From: a virus
DNA: 37,890 nucleotides
Reading direction: 5' to 3' (one strand)
IMG/VR virus record: IMGVR_UViG_3300023094_000024
Span: 1-37,890 of that record
Shown here: positions 1-37,890 of the stretch, piece by piece
How the letters are laid out: every line of letters starts with the position of its first letter
Position numbering within the stretch: the stretch's first letter is position 1
Notes under the pieces: generated by a model
The model's input: the letters and a program-made list of their open reading frames with translations, nothing else
Database searches by the model: none
What the model was told of the DNA's origin: nothing
Position numbers and translations under genes: made by a program

Positions 1-99
1 GAAGGTATAAAATACCTGTAATACTGTTCTCATAACATCTCTATTTGCCCCACAACCCTAATACTGTTCTCATAACATCTCTATTTGCCCCACAACCCT
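1..99. repeat. Terminal direct repeat, left copy (99 bp)
   Basis: Bases 1-99 are identical to 37791-37889; the next base differs (t at 100, a at 37890). The match shows that the molecule is circular or terminally redundant. A 99-bp overlap is also a common k-mer length in de Bruijn assembly, so it may be an assembly overlap rather than a biological terminal repeat. It contains two copies of a 40-bp tandem repeat and the first 11 codons of the small membrane-protein gene that is complete at 37680-37823. Confidence 0.95.
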
Positions 100-4387: not shown

Positions 4388-5088
4388 TGTTTTGATTTTT
4401 GGGTGTTGTTATACCATTGGATGAATTGAATTACGGCAGAATAAACTCCTTGTATTTTAGTTAATCTATCTGCATCATTAGGGTCATCATGGAAATAATT
4501 ACAATTCAAAGTATTAGCAATTACCCTTTTGCCTTGATATTTTCCTCCACCTGCATTACTTTCATTAATACCGATATAAGCACCATTGCTACCTATTGAA
4601 GCTACTATAGGAAATCCTGTATAATGCATATTTTCTATCTTCTCTACCACAGGCATTAATGTATTCCATGATTTATAATAAGCTAAATCAAATGGATCAT
4701 AAGTTTCAACCATTGCGTCCTTATGTTTTTTTACTTTATAACAATCCACCTCTTTGTTACCAAAAAAATCACCAAGCTTTAATTTAAACAAAGTAAGTTT
4801 TTCGCTTGAAACTACTGGGGCTATTACGCCGTATTGAGTATTGGCATCATACTGCTGCCATATATCTTGTTCGTAAAAGTGGTAGCCCATAAACTCCGCA
4901 ATCATTTTATTCCCTTGTATTATTTCTTCTGTTGTCATACCTTCTTTATTTTCCTTGTTATCTGTTGATGGTGGGGAGTTTTTATTTTCCAGGTTGGCGT
5001 CCATCTGAACCATTACCCCACACACTAAAAAGCATGTAATAATTATACCTACCAACACAATGCATATGTTATATATTTCCATAATCAC
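4384..5088 (-). CDS. Membrane-anchored member of a phage 'IAEFMGY...PVVEKI' family
   Basis: This 234-residue protein contains the signature of a very common uncharacterised Bacteroidota phage family: GNKMIAEFMGY, then SWNTLMPVVEKIE, then a final AVIQFIQWYN. It is a paralogue of the gene at 6154-6564. It differs by an N-terminal extension of about 50 residues holding one transmembrane segment (about 8-28, IVLVGIIITCFLVCGVMV) and a charged linker. An internal ATG at residue 51 (MTTEEIIQGNK) lies where the shorter paralogue begins. The function of the family is unknown; here it may be tethered to the inner membrane. Confidence 0.75.
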   Translation of the reverse strand: MIMEIYNICIVLVGIIITCFLVCGVMVQMDANLENKNSPPSTDNKENKEGMTTEEIIQGNKMIAEFMGYHFYEQDIWQQYDANTQYGVIAPVVSSEKLTLFKLKLGDFFGNKEVDCYKVKKHKDAMVETYDPFDLAYYKSWNTLMPVVEKIENMHYTGFPIVASIGSNGAYIGINESNAGGGKYQGKRVIANTLNCNYFHDDPNDADRLTKIQGVYSAVIQFIQWYNNTQKSKQ

Positions 5089-5090
5089 AA

Positions 5091-5726
5091 TTAAATTAAT
5101 CCGTTATTTTTAGCAGCAACATCCAGCTTCACTCCATCCATCACATCCATATAAAATGAAACATAAGGATCTTTTTTTCTTTTGCGCCTATCACCTTTAC
5201 CATCTTCTTCCGGCTTTGGTGTGGATGGTTGTTCTCCATCCGGCGCGATGGCTTTGGTATTGTGGGTAGCTAAGTATATTGGAACAAGATTGCATTTAGC
5301 AAGATTATCAAAATAAGATTTAGGAATACATTCATAGCAAGCGACATTTGCTTGTCGCCCATCCTCTATTAACTCATCAATAGTTTTACTTGCAGGGAAA
5401 ATACAAGGTATTCTACTTTCGTAAATTCCTTTTGGCAACATACGTGAATCAACAAATATTTCACCTTGCATTAGTGCTACATACTTCCTACTGATACACT
5501 CCGCACTCTGCTCTCTAACCCCTTCACTCTGTTGCTCTGCTTGCCAGGTTGCACCAGTTATAAATAATAACTGTTTTTGTTTTATATCTTCTTCGTATTG
5601 TTCATAATAATACGGCACTTCTCCCTCATCTGGATTATAATCATCCATACCTAATTTATAAAAATCATCATTACTCATTATCGGAAATCTCCTCTCTGCC
5701 TCCTGTTGTATTTGTTCAATATCCAT
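5091..5726 (-). CDS. Protein of unknown function (211 aa)
   Basis: The start at 5726 (MDIEQIQQEAERRFPIMSND) is chosen because it lies just after the stop of the upstream gene; a longer reading would overlap it. The N-terminal half contains LLFITGATWQAEQQ, a phrase typical of short unnamed phage proteins, usually as GAxWQ. The C-terminal half is distinct, with three Cys residues (ANVACYECIP, NLAKCN) and ends in a basic linker (GDRRKRKKDPY). It may be a fusion of two small modules. No function can be given. Confidence 0.68.
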   Translation of the reverse strand: MDIEQIQQEAERRFPIMSNDDFYKLGMDDYNPDEGEVPYYYEQYEEDIKQKQLLFITGATWQAEQQSEGVREQSAECISRKYVALMQGEIFVDSRMLPKGIYESRIPCIFPASKTIDELIEDGRQANVACYECIPKSYFDNLAKCNLVPIYLATHNTKAIAPDGEQPSTPKPEEDGKGDRRKRKKDPYVSFYMDVMDGVKLDVAAKNNGLI

Positions 5727-6161: not shown

Positions 6162-6564
6162 TGTTGTTAGTGTTAAGGGTGTTATGCCATTGGATGAATT
6201 GAATTACGGCTTTGTAAACCGCATTTATTAAACTACCCTCTATTGCTACATTTGTTGTAATAGGAGGCATTGGGAAACCAGCTATTTTCACATAGCCTCT
6301 TGGGATTATTTCAATTCTGTAACCTGTCCAGTTTGGTGCAGGTGTAATGTCTATTTCAATTATCTTTTCTACCACAGGCATTAATAAATCCCAACTTAAA
6401 TCAAATTGAGGCAATCCTTGACTAACCGCTCCAGTAATATCTGTCAGCCACAGTTCATTTCTATCATCGGTTATATTGCTGGTATTTTTCACCTTTTCAT
6501 ATCCCATGAATTTTGCGATTAGTTTATTACCTGCTATTATTTCTTCATTAGTTAATTGTTGCAT
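6154..6564 (-). CDS. Soluble member of the phage 'IAKFMGY...PVVEKI' family
   Basis: This 136-residue protein carries GNKLIAKFMGY, SWDLLMPVVEKI and AVYKAVIQFIQWHN in the family's usual order and spacing. It is a clear paralogue of 4384-5088 but lacks that protein's membrane anchor. The two share their last segment almost word for word (AVIQFIQW). Biochemical role unknown. Confidence 0.78.
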   Translation of the reverse strand: MQQLTNEEIIAGNKLIAKFMGYEKVKNTSNITDDRNELWLTDITGAVSQGLPQFDLSWDLLMPVVEKIIEIDITPAPNWTGYRIEIIPRGYVKIAGFPMPPITTNVAIEGSLINAVYKAVIQFIQWHNTLNTNNNG

Positions 6565-8288: not shown

Positions 8289-8298
8289 ATTACTTAGT

Positions 8299-8472
8299 TT
8301 ACTTTTTTATAAGCCTGCGGTGGTGAGGGGTGTTGTTAATCCGATTACTTTCTTTATTCAGGATGTTTTCCATAAACTTGGTAAGGTCGCCGCCGCTTGT
8401 TTTTTTAGCCGCCTTCTTCCATTCCTGAATGTCCGCTTCTTCAAATCTTTTTGTCGTGAGTTTCTTTGCCAT
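8299..8472 (-). CDS. Small basic protein, possibly DNA-binding (57 aa)
   Basis: A 57-codon gene starts at the ATG at 8472, six bases after the previous gene ends, and stops 11 bp before the next. It begins MAKKLTTKRFEEADIQEWKK and continues AAKKTSGGDLTKFMENILNK: a short basic strand and two helices. That resembles ribbon-helix-helix or plasmid-type small regulators, but the match is only by shape. It is the second gene after the promoter at 8659-8688. Confidence 0.7.
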   Translation of the reverse strand: MAKKLTTKRFEEADIQEWKKAAKKTSGGDLTKFMENILNKESNRINNTPHHRRLIKK

Positions 8473-8477
8473 AATAT

Positions 8478-8654
8478 TTATGCTACGAATATTTGATAAT
8501 ATCCTTTGGGATGTTTTACTTTTCTTACTATTTTAAATGATGCTTTTGCTTCTTTTATTATTTCTTCGTTTTCAGCCGCAGTGTAGGCAAGGTCTGCATA
8601 GTTGGTCATTTTAACCCCTTTTATTATTCTGTAACAGTTTGATTGATGCTTCAT
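8478..8654 (-). CDS. First gene of the accessory operon, unknown function (58 aa)
   Basis: A 58-codon gene begins at the ATG at 8654, only four bases after the -7 box, so the transcript would be leaderless or nearly so. A second ATG, at residue 16 (MTNYADLAYTAAENE), would give a normal leader and a 43-residue protein. The product ends KVKHPKGYYQIFVA. No family is recognised. Confidence 0.6.
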   Translation of the reverse strand: MKHQSNCYRIIKGVKMTNYADLAYTAAENEEIIKEAKASFKIVRKVKHPKGYYQIFVA

Positions 8655-8658
8655 GTCA

Positions 8659-8688
8659 CAAATATATGTCGTAACTACGTAACTACAA
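8659..8688 (-). promoter_or_regulatory. Promoter of the accessory operon, with GTAACTAC repeat
   Basis: The minus strand has TTG (8688-8686), a 19-base spacer and TATATTTG (8666-8659), a full match to the Bacteroidota promoter. The spacer contains two directly adjacent copies of GTAACTAC on the plus strand (8671-8678, 8679-8686). The same GTAACT core is repeated at the probable origin (31479-31751). A protein bound here would cover the promoter. Confidence 0.82.
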
Positions 8689-8717
8689 AATAAAATCTTT
8701 ACGGATTTCCCGTAATT

Positions 8718-8744
8718 AAAAAAGCCCCGACCGAAGTAGGGGCT
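8718..8744 (-). terminator. Intrinsic terminator of the one-gene cassette
   Basis: Stem AGCCCC/GGGGCT, with an inner AC-TTCG-GT hairpin (a stable C(UUCG)G tetraloop), followed by six T on the minus strand. It ends the 8770-9057 transcript just before the promoter of the accessory operon. Confidence 0.88.
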
Positions 8745-8769
8745 ACGTACATAGAACTTATCAAGGAAA

Positions 8770-35826: not shown

Positions 35827-36438
35827 TCAATTATCATTATCTAATTCGGTTGCGGCGGTGGTGGTAGCTAAAGTAAGCGCCTTTAAAGCCACCTTCTGCA
35901 TATCGGTTAAAGTATAAGTAGCCTCCATTTTTTCTACTAAATCTTTTTCGCCTTTCTTTATTCGCTCAATAGCTTTATCAAATGCGTCATTGCTAACGGC
36001 AGGCTTAGGTGCGAACTTAGGCGGCGCTGATGGTGCGGCAGGCTTCTTTACCGTTGCGCCGTTTGCGTCATCATCTTCTGCCCCAAGATTAACCAGGGAT
36101 TGCAAGCCGTACCTGCGAGCGTAGCTAATGCCGCTACCTTGCCTTTGCGCATCATTCGCTTTATCATTGATAATCTTCGCAAACGACCCTATCCATTCAC
36201 CGCTATCATGCAGTAATATCGTTTCTACGTAATCAATACCATCAATAACGCATATAGGTTGCAATACTGATATTTGGTTATTATTTAATGCTGGCATACA
36301 GGCTTCTAAAACAGAATTAAGATCGGCGTAATTCTTTTTAAAGAACGGGTTGACTGCATCTTTTTTGGGTGTGCTCATTTCCGATTGCGCTTTTACAAGT
36401 GCTTTGGATATTGCCCCGATAGTTGGTGATGAATGCAT
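35827..36438 (-). CDS. erf: Erf-family single-strand annealing protein
   Basis: The 203-residue protein matches the ERF superfamily (phage P22 Erf): ALVKAQSEM, FFKKNYADLNSVLEACMPAL, VETILLHDSGEW and the conserved RQGSGISYARRYGLQSLVNL (99-118), followed by AEDDDAN. The C-terminal part is a Pro/Ala linker and an acidic helical end. It anneals single strands for recombination and perhaps genome circularisation. A terminator lies just upstream with no clear promoter after it, so transcription may read through. Confidence 0.93.
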   Translation of the reverse strand: MHSSPTIGAISKALVKAQSEMSTPKKDAVNPFFKKNYADLNSVLEACMPALNNNQISVLQPICVIDGIDYVETILLHDSGEWIGSFAKIINDKANDAQRQGSGISYARRYGLQSLVNLGAEDDDANGATVKKPAAPSAPPKFAPKPAVSNDAFDKAIERIKKGEKDLVEKMEATYTLTDMQKVALKALTLATTTAATELDNDN

Positions 36439-36470: not shown

Positions 36471-36495
36471 AAAAAGCCCGTGTAGAAACACAGGC
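36471..36495 (-). terminator. Terminator after the tRNA-like gene
   Basis: Minus-strand stem GCCTGTGT/ACACGGGC (8 bp with one G-U) with a TTCT loop, then TTTTT. It lies 46 bp after the tRNA-like gene and 33 bp before the Erf start. The stretch 36496-36541 holds nothing else I can identify. Confidence 0.87.
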
Positions 36496-36541
36496 CGTGT
36501 TTACCAAAACTGCTTAACGCAATTGTCCTATGAAAAAACCG

Positions 36542-36612
36542 AAGCAAGAGGGAGATTCGAACTCCCGACCTCAGGCTGATGCCTGCTCTCTGGCCAACTG
36601 AGCTACCTTGCT
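36542..36612 (-). tRNA. tRNA-like gene with a 4-nt anticodon loop (no usable anticodon)
   Basis: The 71-nt minus-strand sequence folds as a tRNA. Acceptor AGCAAGG pairs with TCTTGCT; TA follows; the D arm is GCTC-AGTTGGCCA-GAGA; then G; the anticodon stem CAGGC/GCCTG encloses only ATCA; the variable region is AGGTC; the T arm is GGGAG-TTCGAAT-CTCCC. With a normal 7-nt loop it would be 74 nt, so exactly three bases are absent, all in the anticodon loop. The 3' CCA is not encoded. An extra A36613-T36542 pair could extend the acceptor to 8 bp. All other conserved parts (T8, GG of the D loop, TTCGAAT) are intact, so decay is confined to the decoding end. Confidence 0.8.
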
Positions 36613-36688: not shown

Positions 36689-36895
36689 TTATAATTCATT
36701 CCTATGTTTATTTTTCTCCGCTTCTTCCTTAGCCTCCTCCGCAGGCTTCAACCGCTGCTGCTCGTTGAACTTATCCATCCACTTCCACGATGCCGTACGC
36801 TTCAGTTCCTTGTGCCTCTTATAATTCCCGTGCGTTAATACATCTTCGGGGTTGAGGGCTATATGCTGTCGGTATTCGATTTCCTGGGGGGTCAT
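36689..36895 (-). CDS. Small charged helical protein (68 aa)
   Basis: The ATG at 36895 overlaps the TGA of the upstream gene (ATGA), which decides the start. The product begins MTPQEIEYRQHIALNPEDVL and is almost all helix, ending in a Glu/Lys-rich tail (PAEEAKEEAEKNKHRNEL). No family is recognised. The 76 bp between its stop and the tRNA-like gene show nothing convincing. Confidence 0.65.
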   Translation of the reverse strand: MTPQEIEYRQHIALNPEDVLTHGNYKRHKELKRTASWKWMDKFNEQQRLKPAEEAKEEAEKNKHRNEL

Positions 36896-37158
36896 AATCT
36901 GTATTTTTGTAGTTCGCCATCCATAAGGGATTGTGCCCATGTTTGTAATTTATCTATCAAGAAACCGTAACAATCTGCGTGTAAAGGCGGCATTTTTATA
37001 AATTCATCATTGCCAACAGGCTTAAATTCGGCAACGGTTACACGCTCAACTTGTCGCACACTCTTAACATCGTAAGGATGTGATACGTAGTAGTTAGCAG
37101 TTATGCGCAACGTTCCGTTACTATCAGTAAACTCTGTGGTGATGTTTTCTATCAGCAT
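36892..37158 (-). CDS. Protein of unknown function (88 aa)
   Basis: The product begins MLIENITTEFTDSNGTLRIT and has beta strands up to about residue 50 (RVTVAEFKPVGNDEFIKMPP), then a helix LIDKLQTWAQSLM. No family is recognised. It overlaps the preceding gene by 7 bp and the following gene by 4 bp. Confidence 0.65.
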   Translation of the reverse strand: MLIENITTEFTDSNGTLRITANYYVSHPYDVKSVRQVERVTVAEFKPVGNDEFIKMPPLHADCYGFLIDKLQTWAQSLMDGELQKYRL

Positions 37159-37679: not shown

Positions 37680-37823
37680 TTACAATTTCACATCCTCCCT
37701 CCTCCCGTTCCCGTCCGGCAGCAGACACGCACCGATATACAGCGGTATGGTAAGGAATATAGCCGCTACGATCAGGTAAGCGCCGATGAGGAAGGTATAA
37801 AATACCTGTAATACTGTTCTCAT
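37680..37823 (-). CDS. Small single-span membrane protein at the genome end (47 aa)
   Basis: The start ATG (37823-37821) lies in the 40-bp repeat and the stop is at 37680. The product begins MRTVLQVFYTFLIGAYLIVA, continues AIFLTIPLYIGACLLPDG and ends in a charged tail, RREDVKL. It has one or two membrane segments. On the circular molecule it follows the 91-residue gene, to which it would be coupled by ATGA if only one repeat unit were present. Its first 11 codons are duplicated at bases 1-33. Function unknown. Confidence 0.65.
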   Translation of the reverse strand: MRTVLQVFYTFLIGAYLIVAAIFLTIPLYIGACLLPDGNGRREDVKL

Positions 37824-37890
37824 AACATCTCTATTTGCCCCACAACCCTAATACTGTTCTCATAACATCTCTATTTGCCCCACAACCCTA
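37791..37890. repeat. Terminal direct repeat, right copy, with two 40-bp units
   Basis: 37791-37889 repeats bases 1-99. The 40-bp units are 37811-37850 and 37851-37890, both ending in a. Since the left array ends in t, the right end is compatible with reading into at least one more unit before unique sequence. Confidence 0.93.

What the first reader, a model, noticed from the sequence alone, without database searches (positions are those of the whole stretch)
36542..36612. tRNA with the anticodon loop cut to four bases
Every arm of the cloverleaf is intact, but the anticodon stem CAGGC/GCCTG closes on ATCA alone, so no triplet can be read; exactly three bases are missing against a standard 74-nt tRNA. 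Random decay would hit the acceptor and T arm too, yet these are kept. A decoy for anticodon nucleases, a charging or recombination target, or a structural RNA are possible (inference). Host anticodon nucleases such as PrrC, RloC and VapC cut in this loop (established).
Basis: partly seen in the sequence, partly recalled or inferred. Interest (0 to 1): 0.7.

Follow-up and report, generated by a model that had tools for sequence, protein, structure and literature searches.

The report
Phage tRNA gene without an anticodon
A bacterial virus carries a tRNA-shaped gene in which the part that reads the genetic code has shrunk to a four-base loop; its relatives often carry tRNA genes broken at the same spot but sound elsewhere, so it may be an RNA kept for its shape, although a recently broken gene cannot be excluded.

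Summary
On the minus strand, 36612-36542 is a 71-nt tRNA gene (Rfam RF00005, 46.8 bits; ARAGORN 'tRNA-???') with full acceptor stem and T arm, and an anticodon stem CAGGC/GCCTG closed by ATCA: no anticodon. Its shell is elongator tRNA-Met-like; a 3-base loss from a CAU loop (ATCATAA to ATCA) is the simplest origin (inferred). It lies in the second-largest intergenic gap, followed by a terminator-like hairpin before an ERF recombinase gene. The phage has no detected integrase.

It is not a one-off. In related phages (Bacteroidota type), 8 of 11 distinct tRNA-like genes have an abnormal anticodon region, against 7 of 618 in a tRNA-rich control set; one relative has ACCG-GAAA-CGGT. All 8 keep 12/12 acceptor and T-stem pairs, and no half-decayed shells were found. 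Short-anticodon-arm tRNAs recur across IMG/VR (51 distinct), but only 29 of 51 keep a perfect acceptor, so part of that class is decaying.

Best reading: a non-decoding tRNA-like RNA kept for its body (confidence 0.5). A recently broken tRNA-Met is a close rival. A decoy for anticodon-loop nucleases is unlikely, because their target loop is gone.

The parts
36542..36612 (-). 71-nt tRNA-like gene, elongator tRNA-Met-like shell, no anticodon
   Evidence: ARAGORN tRNA-???; RF00005 46.8 bits; shell similarity to tRNA-Met
36606..36612 (-). 5' strand of acceptor stem AGCAAGG, pairs with 36543-36549
   Evidence: 7/7 pairs, one G-U
36543..36549 (-). 3' strand of acceptor stem TCTTGCT; 36542 is discriminator U73; no CCA encoded
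   Evidence: sequence; pairing
36587..36603 (-). D arm GCTC-AGTTGGCCA-GAGA (3/4 pairs; alternative register 4/4 with GAGC)
   Evidence: sequence; covariance-model alignment
36572..36585 (-). shortened anticodon arm CAGGC-ATCA-GCCTG; the four-base loop is 36577-36580
   Evidence: sequence; ARAGORN and Rfam alignment
36550..36566 (-). T arm GGGAG-TTCGAAT-CTCCC
   Evidence: 5/5 pairs
36471..36496 (-). terminator-like hairpin GGCCTGTGT-TTCT-ACACGGGCT followed by a T run, between the tRNA-like gene and ERF
   Evidence: -14.2 kcal/mol, z -3.9, 0 of 200 shuffles as good. The consensus scan did not list it, apparently because its T count falls after the longest stem.
35827..36438 (-). ERF-family ssDNA-annealing protein gene, next gene downstream (context)
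   Evidence: Pfam PF04404 3.6e-25; PHROG 2324
36689..36940 (-). 83-aa ORF of unknown function, next gene upstream (context)
   Evidence: no Pfam match

Best explanation
The element is a non-decoding tRNA-like RNA of a virulent-looking Bacteroidota-type phage. It is a tRNA-Met-type shell whose anticodon loop was lost, most simply ATCATAA to ATCA, and which is kept for its tRNA body (acceptor stem, T arm, elbow) rather than for decoding. Expected course: transcription ends at the hairpin at 36471-36496, RNase P and RNase Z trim the RNA, the CCA enzyme adds CCA, and the product is a stable L-shaped RNA that cannot enter decoding but can occupy host proteins that read the tRNA body. The most plausible use is as a sponge or competitor for such proteins, for example tRNA-body-directed defence enzymes. 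Shown here: the sequence, the model match, intact acceptor and T stems, the terminator-like hairpin, and the recurrence of anticodon-region defects with perfect shells in the lineage. Inferred: expression, processing, selection on this copy, and the sponge role, which alone I would put at about 0.15-0.2.
For: 8 of 11 distinct tRNA-like genes in the lineage have an abnormal anticodon region (window, G005b, G040, G026 short or small loops; G002, G010, G025, G029 long inserts) against 7 of 618 in control viral contigs; Fisher tests on slightly different lineage denominators (7/9, 8/12) give p below 1e-10. All 8 keep 12/12 acceptor and T-stem pairs, and about 83% of single substitutions in those sites would break a pair. 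A lax RF00005 search (E up to 1) of 31 records found no half-decayed shells beyond these elements and one attP-like tRNA half. G005b, in a relative with 64% terminase identity, ends in a GAAA tetraloop, ACCG-GAAA-CGGT. The gene sits in the second-largest intergenic gap (250 nt) with a terminator-like hairpin. In other phages short-arm tRNAs persist through divergence: L145/L152/L183 differ at 4 of 70 sites, 3 of them in the loop; L149/L157 hold three paralogues with a shared shell, two with four-base loops; L144 and L173 share only this element, with a compensatory T-stem change.
Against: No orthologue of this copy was found, so selection on it is unproven. One recent deletion would leave the same picture. 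In IMG/VR the short-arm class keeps a 7/7 acceptor in 29 of 51 cases against 65 of 72 for normal-arm controls, p 2.6e-05, so many such genes are decaying. The lineage excess mixes short loops with long inserts, and the long ones may be intron-bearing tRNAs that decode after splicing. Exactly-four-base loops alone are only 2-3 of about 12 against 1 of 618 (p 1e-3 to 2e-5). The control contigs were chosen for holding a normal tRNA and come from tRNA-rich phages, and my finder requires near-intact shells (at least 6/7 and 4/5 pairs), so intactness is partly built in. No clear promoter was seen: the upstream TATTCTTG is a one-mismatch hit of a kind that occurs about 10 times per kb. U73 and the missing CCA give no charging identity.
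Confidence: 0.5

Rival explanations
1. Recently broken tRNA gene: a phage tRNA-Met(CAU) lost three bases of its loop (ATCATAA to ATCA) and is now a pseudogene on its way out; nothing acts through it.
For: The shell matches tRNA-Met: in 84,980 species genomes the shell pattern gave 105 hits, and every one checked was tRNA-Met(CAT). A single 3-base deletion from a CAU loop explains the loop. Decay is visible in the wider short-arm class (29/51 against 65/72 intact acceptors), and fragments without a T arm exist (L417, L419).
Against: Every stem is still paired. No half-decayed shells were found in the lineage at E up to 1, although broken forms outnumber normal ones, which neutral decay in compact phage genomes should not produce. 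Position 32 is A rather than the usual pyrimidine, so an intact parent loop would itself have been unusual.
Confidence: 0.35
2. Decoy for anticodon nucleases (PrrC, RloC, VapC, AriB): the RNA binds the enzyme but cannot be cut.
For: Phage tRNAs do counter tRNA-targeting defences: van den Berg 2023 (PMC10264068), T5 tRNAs against PARIS (PMC12409363), tRNA-Tyr against retron-Eco7 (PMC11555353).
Against: In those cases the phage tRNA stays a working tRNA; changing the anticodon or mutating the stem-loop of phage tRNA-Tyr abolished rescue (PMC11555353), and T5 tRNAs carry substitutions at or near the cut site. A four-base loop removes the cut and recognition site of loop nucleases. [quoted passage not shown] No host defence gene could be linked to this phage.
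Confidence: 0.07
3. Attachment-site relic: the element is, or derives from, an att site for integration into a host tRNA gene.
For: tRNA genes are common att sites. G019 of the lineage has a 3' tRNA-Val half near an integrase, and G005 has its two tRNA genes next to an integrase.
Against: No tyrosine or serine recombinase was found in the window, no relative of its terminase was found in 84,980 species genomes, and attP normally carries only a 3' half, not a complete cloverleaf.
Confidence: 0.03
4. Sequencing or assembly error that removed three bases from a normal tRNA-Met gene.
For: A metagenomic record; reads were not available.
Against: Short-read errors rarely remove three bases cleanly; similar loops occur in many independent contigs and samples.
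Confidence: 0.05

Closest known systems
Phage-encoded tRNA (Rfam RF00005)
   Same: Acceptor stem, T arm, D-loop GG, overall cloverleaf; tRNA-Met-like shell
   Different: No anticodon: four-base loop instead of seven, 71 nt instead of 74
Phage tRNAs that resist anticodon nucleases (van den Berg 2023, PMC10264068; T5 tRNAs against PARIS, PMC12409363)
   Same: Phage-borne tRNA genes altered in the anticodon arm
   Different: Those keep a decoding loop with point changes; here decoding is impossible
Lak megaphage tRNAs with introns (PMC6784885)
   Same: Phage tRNA genes altered in the anticodon region; possibly the same kind as the long elements in G002, G010, G025 and G029
   Different: Those have an insert that could be spliced out; the window has a deletion
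tmRNA tRNA-like domain
   Same: tRNA-like body without an anticodon (PMC3985003 abstract)
   Different: tmRNA has an mRNA-like part and a tag reading frame; none here (ARAGORN found no tmRNA)
Irregular tRNA and allo-tRNA-like genes of soil metagenomes (Mukai 2017, reviewed in PMC7609411)
   Same: tRNA-like genes that cannot be used in translation in E. coli
   Different: Those have 8/4 or 9/3 acceptor domains and still show anticodons; here the acceptor/T domain is a normal 7/5
Plant-virus tRNA-like structures (reviewed in PMC4810234, PMC4810235)
   Same: Viral RNA that mimics the tRNA elbow to engage host proteins
   Different: Those form part of a genomic RNA 3' end; this is a gene in a dsDNA phage, with no function shown

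Membership tests
tRNA (RF00005), structural sense | match above the curated covariance-model score | tested here: met
   46.8 bits against 29
tRNA (RF00005), structural sense | 7-bp acceptor stem and 5-bp T arm with TTCRANY loop | tested here: met
   7/7 and 5/5 pairs, TTCGAAT
decoding tRNA | seven-base anticodon loop with a readable triplet | tested here: not met
   four-base loop ATCA; ARAGORN tRNA-???
decoding tRNA | aminoacylation | not testable with these tools
   The Met-like shell would lack its CAU determinant; discriminator is U73
anticodon-nuclease-resistant phage tRNA | retains decoding while the cut site is changed | tested here: not met
   no anticodon
phage attP in a tRNA gene | integrase in the phage | tested here: not met
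   no PF00589 or PF00239 match in G000
tmRNA | tRNA-like domain plus tag reading frame | tested here: not met
   ARAGORN reports no tmRNA in the window; no Rfam tmRNA match
intron-bearing phage tRNA (Lak type) | insert in the anticodon region whose removal restores a normal arm | tested here: not met
   element is 3 nt short, no insert
tRNA pseudogene | loss of selection on the whole gene | tested here: inconclusive
   all stems paired; no orthologue to measure selection

The most novel reading that the evidence does not exclude
Some phages, this one included, carry a class of small RNAs made of a tRNA shell with the anticodon loop deliberately removed (often capped by a tetraloop), drawn repeatedly from different tRNA isotypes and selected as body-only tRNA mimics that occupy host tRNA-binding proteins, for instance defence enzymes that read the acceptor and T arm.
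Probability: 0.25. Interest if true: 0.8.

Novelty: new variant of a known kind. Interest (0 to 1): 0.5.

Why it matters
Why phages carry tRNA genes has been debated for decades, and nearly all answers assume that the tRNA decodes. A gene that cannot decode, in a lineage where most tRNA-like genes are broken in the same region and sound elsewhere, offers a clean test of whether phages use tRNAs for their body alone. Current tools call such genes 'undetermined' or miss them, so the class may be under-counted. If the genes prove to be debris, they still show how phage tRNAs die.

Tried and rejected
Exact shell search in IMG/VR: no copy. BLAST in INPHARED: only normal tRNAs, best a tRNA-Met of Salicola phage SCTP-2 at 79%. 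Sequence relatives at the same locus: none; the nearest terminase is 67% identical and the tRNA-like genes of relatives lie elsewhere. Rfam families other than tRNA: none convincing, also not in the long inserts of relatives. Sigma-70 promoter scan: nothing above chance; a Bacteroidota-type -7 box upstream is only a one-mismatch hit. Complementary IMG/VR pattern with non-G52 T stems returned nothing, although the same letters matched the window; I do not lean on it. Tetraloop pattern GGC-NNNN-GCC: four hits, mostly fragments, not a clean class. Genome scan for prophages by terminase: none. Att site, tmRNA, intron and anticodon-nuclease decoy: see rivals and membership. Papers searched: no report of phage tRNAs with a four-base anticodon loop was seen in the open-access library; subscription papers were not searchable. 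One paper search was malformed and returned nothing.

Full report
What is there. The element is on the minus strand, 36612 to 36542, 71 nt. ARAGORN reports tRNA-??? and Rfam RF00005 at 46.8 bits with the missing positions exactly in the anticodon loop. The anticodon stem CAGGC/GCCTG closes on ATCA. Acceptor 7/7 and T stem 5/5 pairs hold. Folding energy alone is not better than shuffles, so the identification rests on the covariance model. G+C is 56% against 40% for the window.

Origin of the shell. In 84,980 species genomes, the pattern GCAAGGTAGCTCAGTTGG...TTCGAATCNCNNNCTTGC gave 105 hits; all that were checked are tRNA-Met(CAT). The nearest annotated-phage match is a tRNA-Met of Salicola phage SCTP-2, 79%. 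The genome hits were drawn with the shell itself, so they inform the isotype, not the donor species. A tRNA-Met loop of the form ATCATAA minus TAA gives ATCA; this is inference.

Context. The record is a 37,890-base virus record with a direct terminal repeat of about 100 bases. All main genes run on the minus strand: terminase and portal, a primase with a VapE-like domain and ERF, and a DNA methyltransferase. Terminase relatives by tblastn are phages of Bacteroides, Flavobacterium and others at under 60% identity. No relative of the terminase was found in bacterial genomes, and neither a tyrosine nor a serine recombinase was found in the window, so the phage looks virulent. The tRNA-like gene lies in a 250-nt gap, the second largest of the window, and is followed by a 9-bp hairpin with a T run (-14.2 kcal/mol, z -3.9) before ERF. 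The upstream region has no convincing promoter.

Relatives. Terminase and ERF searches gave 71 loci, and an alignment query added more. The tRNA model on whole records and my own shell finder gave 11 distinct tRNA-like genes. Three look normal: tRNA-Met in G011, tRNA-Cys in G005, and the tRNA in L424/L425. Eight are abnormal in the anticodon region: the window; G005b (68 nt, ACCG-GAAA-CGGT); G040 (90 nt, weak stem TTAC-ATCG-GTAA); G026 (90 nt, GCTGC-ATCGTA-GCAGC with a large D loop); and long forms in G002 (126 nt), G010 (111), G025 (104) and G029 (147). All 8 keep 12/12 acceptor and T-stem pairs. A lax search found no half-decayed shells apart from a 3' tRNA-Val half near the integrase of G019, a typical attP. 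In a control of 120 viral loci, ARAGORN finds 781 tRNAs and my finder 618 hits, of which 7 are abnormal. The Fisher tests used lineage counts of 7/9 and 8/12; the final recount is 8/11, and all give p far below 1e-9. Caveats: the control contigs were picked for a normal tRNA, the finder demands near-intact shells, and the long forms may be intron-bearing tRNAs that decode after splicing. Counting only exact four-base loops, the excess is 2-3 of about 12 against 1 of 618 (p 1e-3 to 2e-5).

Wider class. A pattern for tRNAs with a shortened anticodon arm gave 58 stretches in IMG/VR, 51 distinct. Stems with three- to six-base loops are common, including TTGCA-GAAA-TGCAA and GCAG-GAAA-CTGT. Acceptors are 7/7 in 29 of 51 against 65 of 72 normal-arm controls (p 2.6e-5), so the class is a mixture of sound and decaying genes. 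Some are kept through divergence. L145/L152/L183 (contigs 92-93% identical) differ at 4 of 70 sites, 3 of them in the loop. L149/L157 carry three paralogues with a shared shell and loops of 7, 4 and 4 bases. L144 and L173 share only this element, at 88%, with a compensatory T-stem change. L142/L153/L180 (contigs 74-80% identical) hold it inside a larger conserved structure with a covarying hairpin, though there the acceptor has only 5 standard pairs.

Mechanism. Shown: an anticodon-free tRNA body with all other stems, a terminator-like hairpin, and recurrence in the lineage. Established: RNase P, RNase Z, the CCA enzyme and many other factors read the acceptor, T arm and elbow (PMC4810234), so such a body should be processed. 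Inferred: selection and function. The shells come from different isotypes (Met-like, Leu-like, Glu-like), which argues against a role that needs a particular amino acid and for a role of the body. Loop nucleases are a poor target because their site is gone, and rescue from retron-Eco7 by phage tRNA-Tyr failed when the anticodon was changed (PMC11555353). [quoted passage not shown] A sponge for such proteins is the most plausible use, with low confidence.

Verdict. Confirmed observation, plausible but unproven function. I give 0.5 to a non-decoding RNA kept for its body, 0.35 to a recently broken tRNA-Met, and the rest to decoy of loop nucleases, att relic and artefact. It is a new variant of a known kind (phage tRNA). 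The open-access papers searched did not report four-base anticodon loops in phage tRNAs; that is a limit of the search, not proof of novelty.

Noticed in passing
L133:4860-4977(-), L133:4612-4724(-), L174:4591-4715(-), L174:5102-5226(-): Arrays of tRNA genes with inserts of about 45 nt in the anticodon region. In L133:4860 and L174:4591, removing an insert between stem positions 29 and 30 would restore a perfect tRNA-Thr(GGT) or tRNA-Asn(GTT); several inserts share a hairpin followed by ACAGCAA or CTGCAA. They look like small tRNA introns.
   Followed up: partly
L142:4920(-), L153:3165(+), L180:401(-): A tRNA-like domain with a 5-6 base anticodon-arm loop lies inside a larger conserved region with a covarying hairpin just downstream, in phage contigs 74-80% identical. 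Candidate structured ncRNA.
   Followed up: partly
L149:4041-4111, 4701-4770, 5322-5388 (same in L157): Three tRNA-like paralogues 620-660 nt apart with nearly the same acceptor and T arm but different anticodon arms (loops of 7, 4 and 4 bases), two with repeated upstream sequence.
   Followed up: partly
L075 (G025), L242:4798(-), L264:12169(-) and 12363(-), L148:5375(-): Nearly the same Leu-like shell AGTCAGGTGGCGGAAT...CAGGTTCAAATCCTGTCCTGACTA carries quite different inserts in place of the anticodon and variable arms.
   Followed up: no
window 36577-36580, L455 (G040), L076 (G026), L003:17768 (G002): Four abnormal tRNA-like genes of the lineage have an anticodon-arm loop starting ATC plus A or G (ATCA, ATCG, ATCGTA, ATCGCTAA...). 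May be chance; seen after the fact.
   Followed up: no
L003:17768-17893 (G002): The 18-base loop of the long anticodon hairpin (TCGCTAA) can pair with TTGGCGA downstream, a possible 7-bp pseudoknot (by eye).
   Followed up: no
G005:40032-40250 (-) and 40561-41070 (-): In G005 a tRNA-Cys and the GAAA-loop tRNA-like gene sit next to a tyrosine integrase gene.
   Followed up: no
L458 (G019:1716-1774): A 3' half of a tRNA-Val near an integrase gene, a typical attP.
   Followed up: partly
L091:8076-8186(-) (G010): The 111-nt tRNA-like gene has TATATTTG (Bacteroidota-type -7 box) two bases upstream and a terminator-like hairpin just downstream, so it looks like its own transcription unit.
   Followed up: partly
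window 1-99 and 37791-37889: Direct terminal repeat of about 100 bases that itself contains a 40-base tandem unit; the record is probably circular or terminally redundant.
   Followed up: no
window 8289-8769: Largest intergenic gap (481 nt) in an otherwise tightly packed genome; no Rfam family matched.
   Followed up: no
window 4407-4668 and 6180-6393: Two stretches 82-88% alike and about 1.75 kb apart suggest a duplicated gene segment.
   Followed up: no
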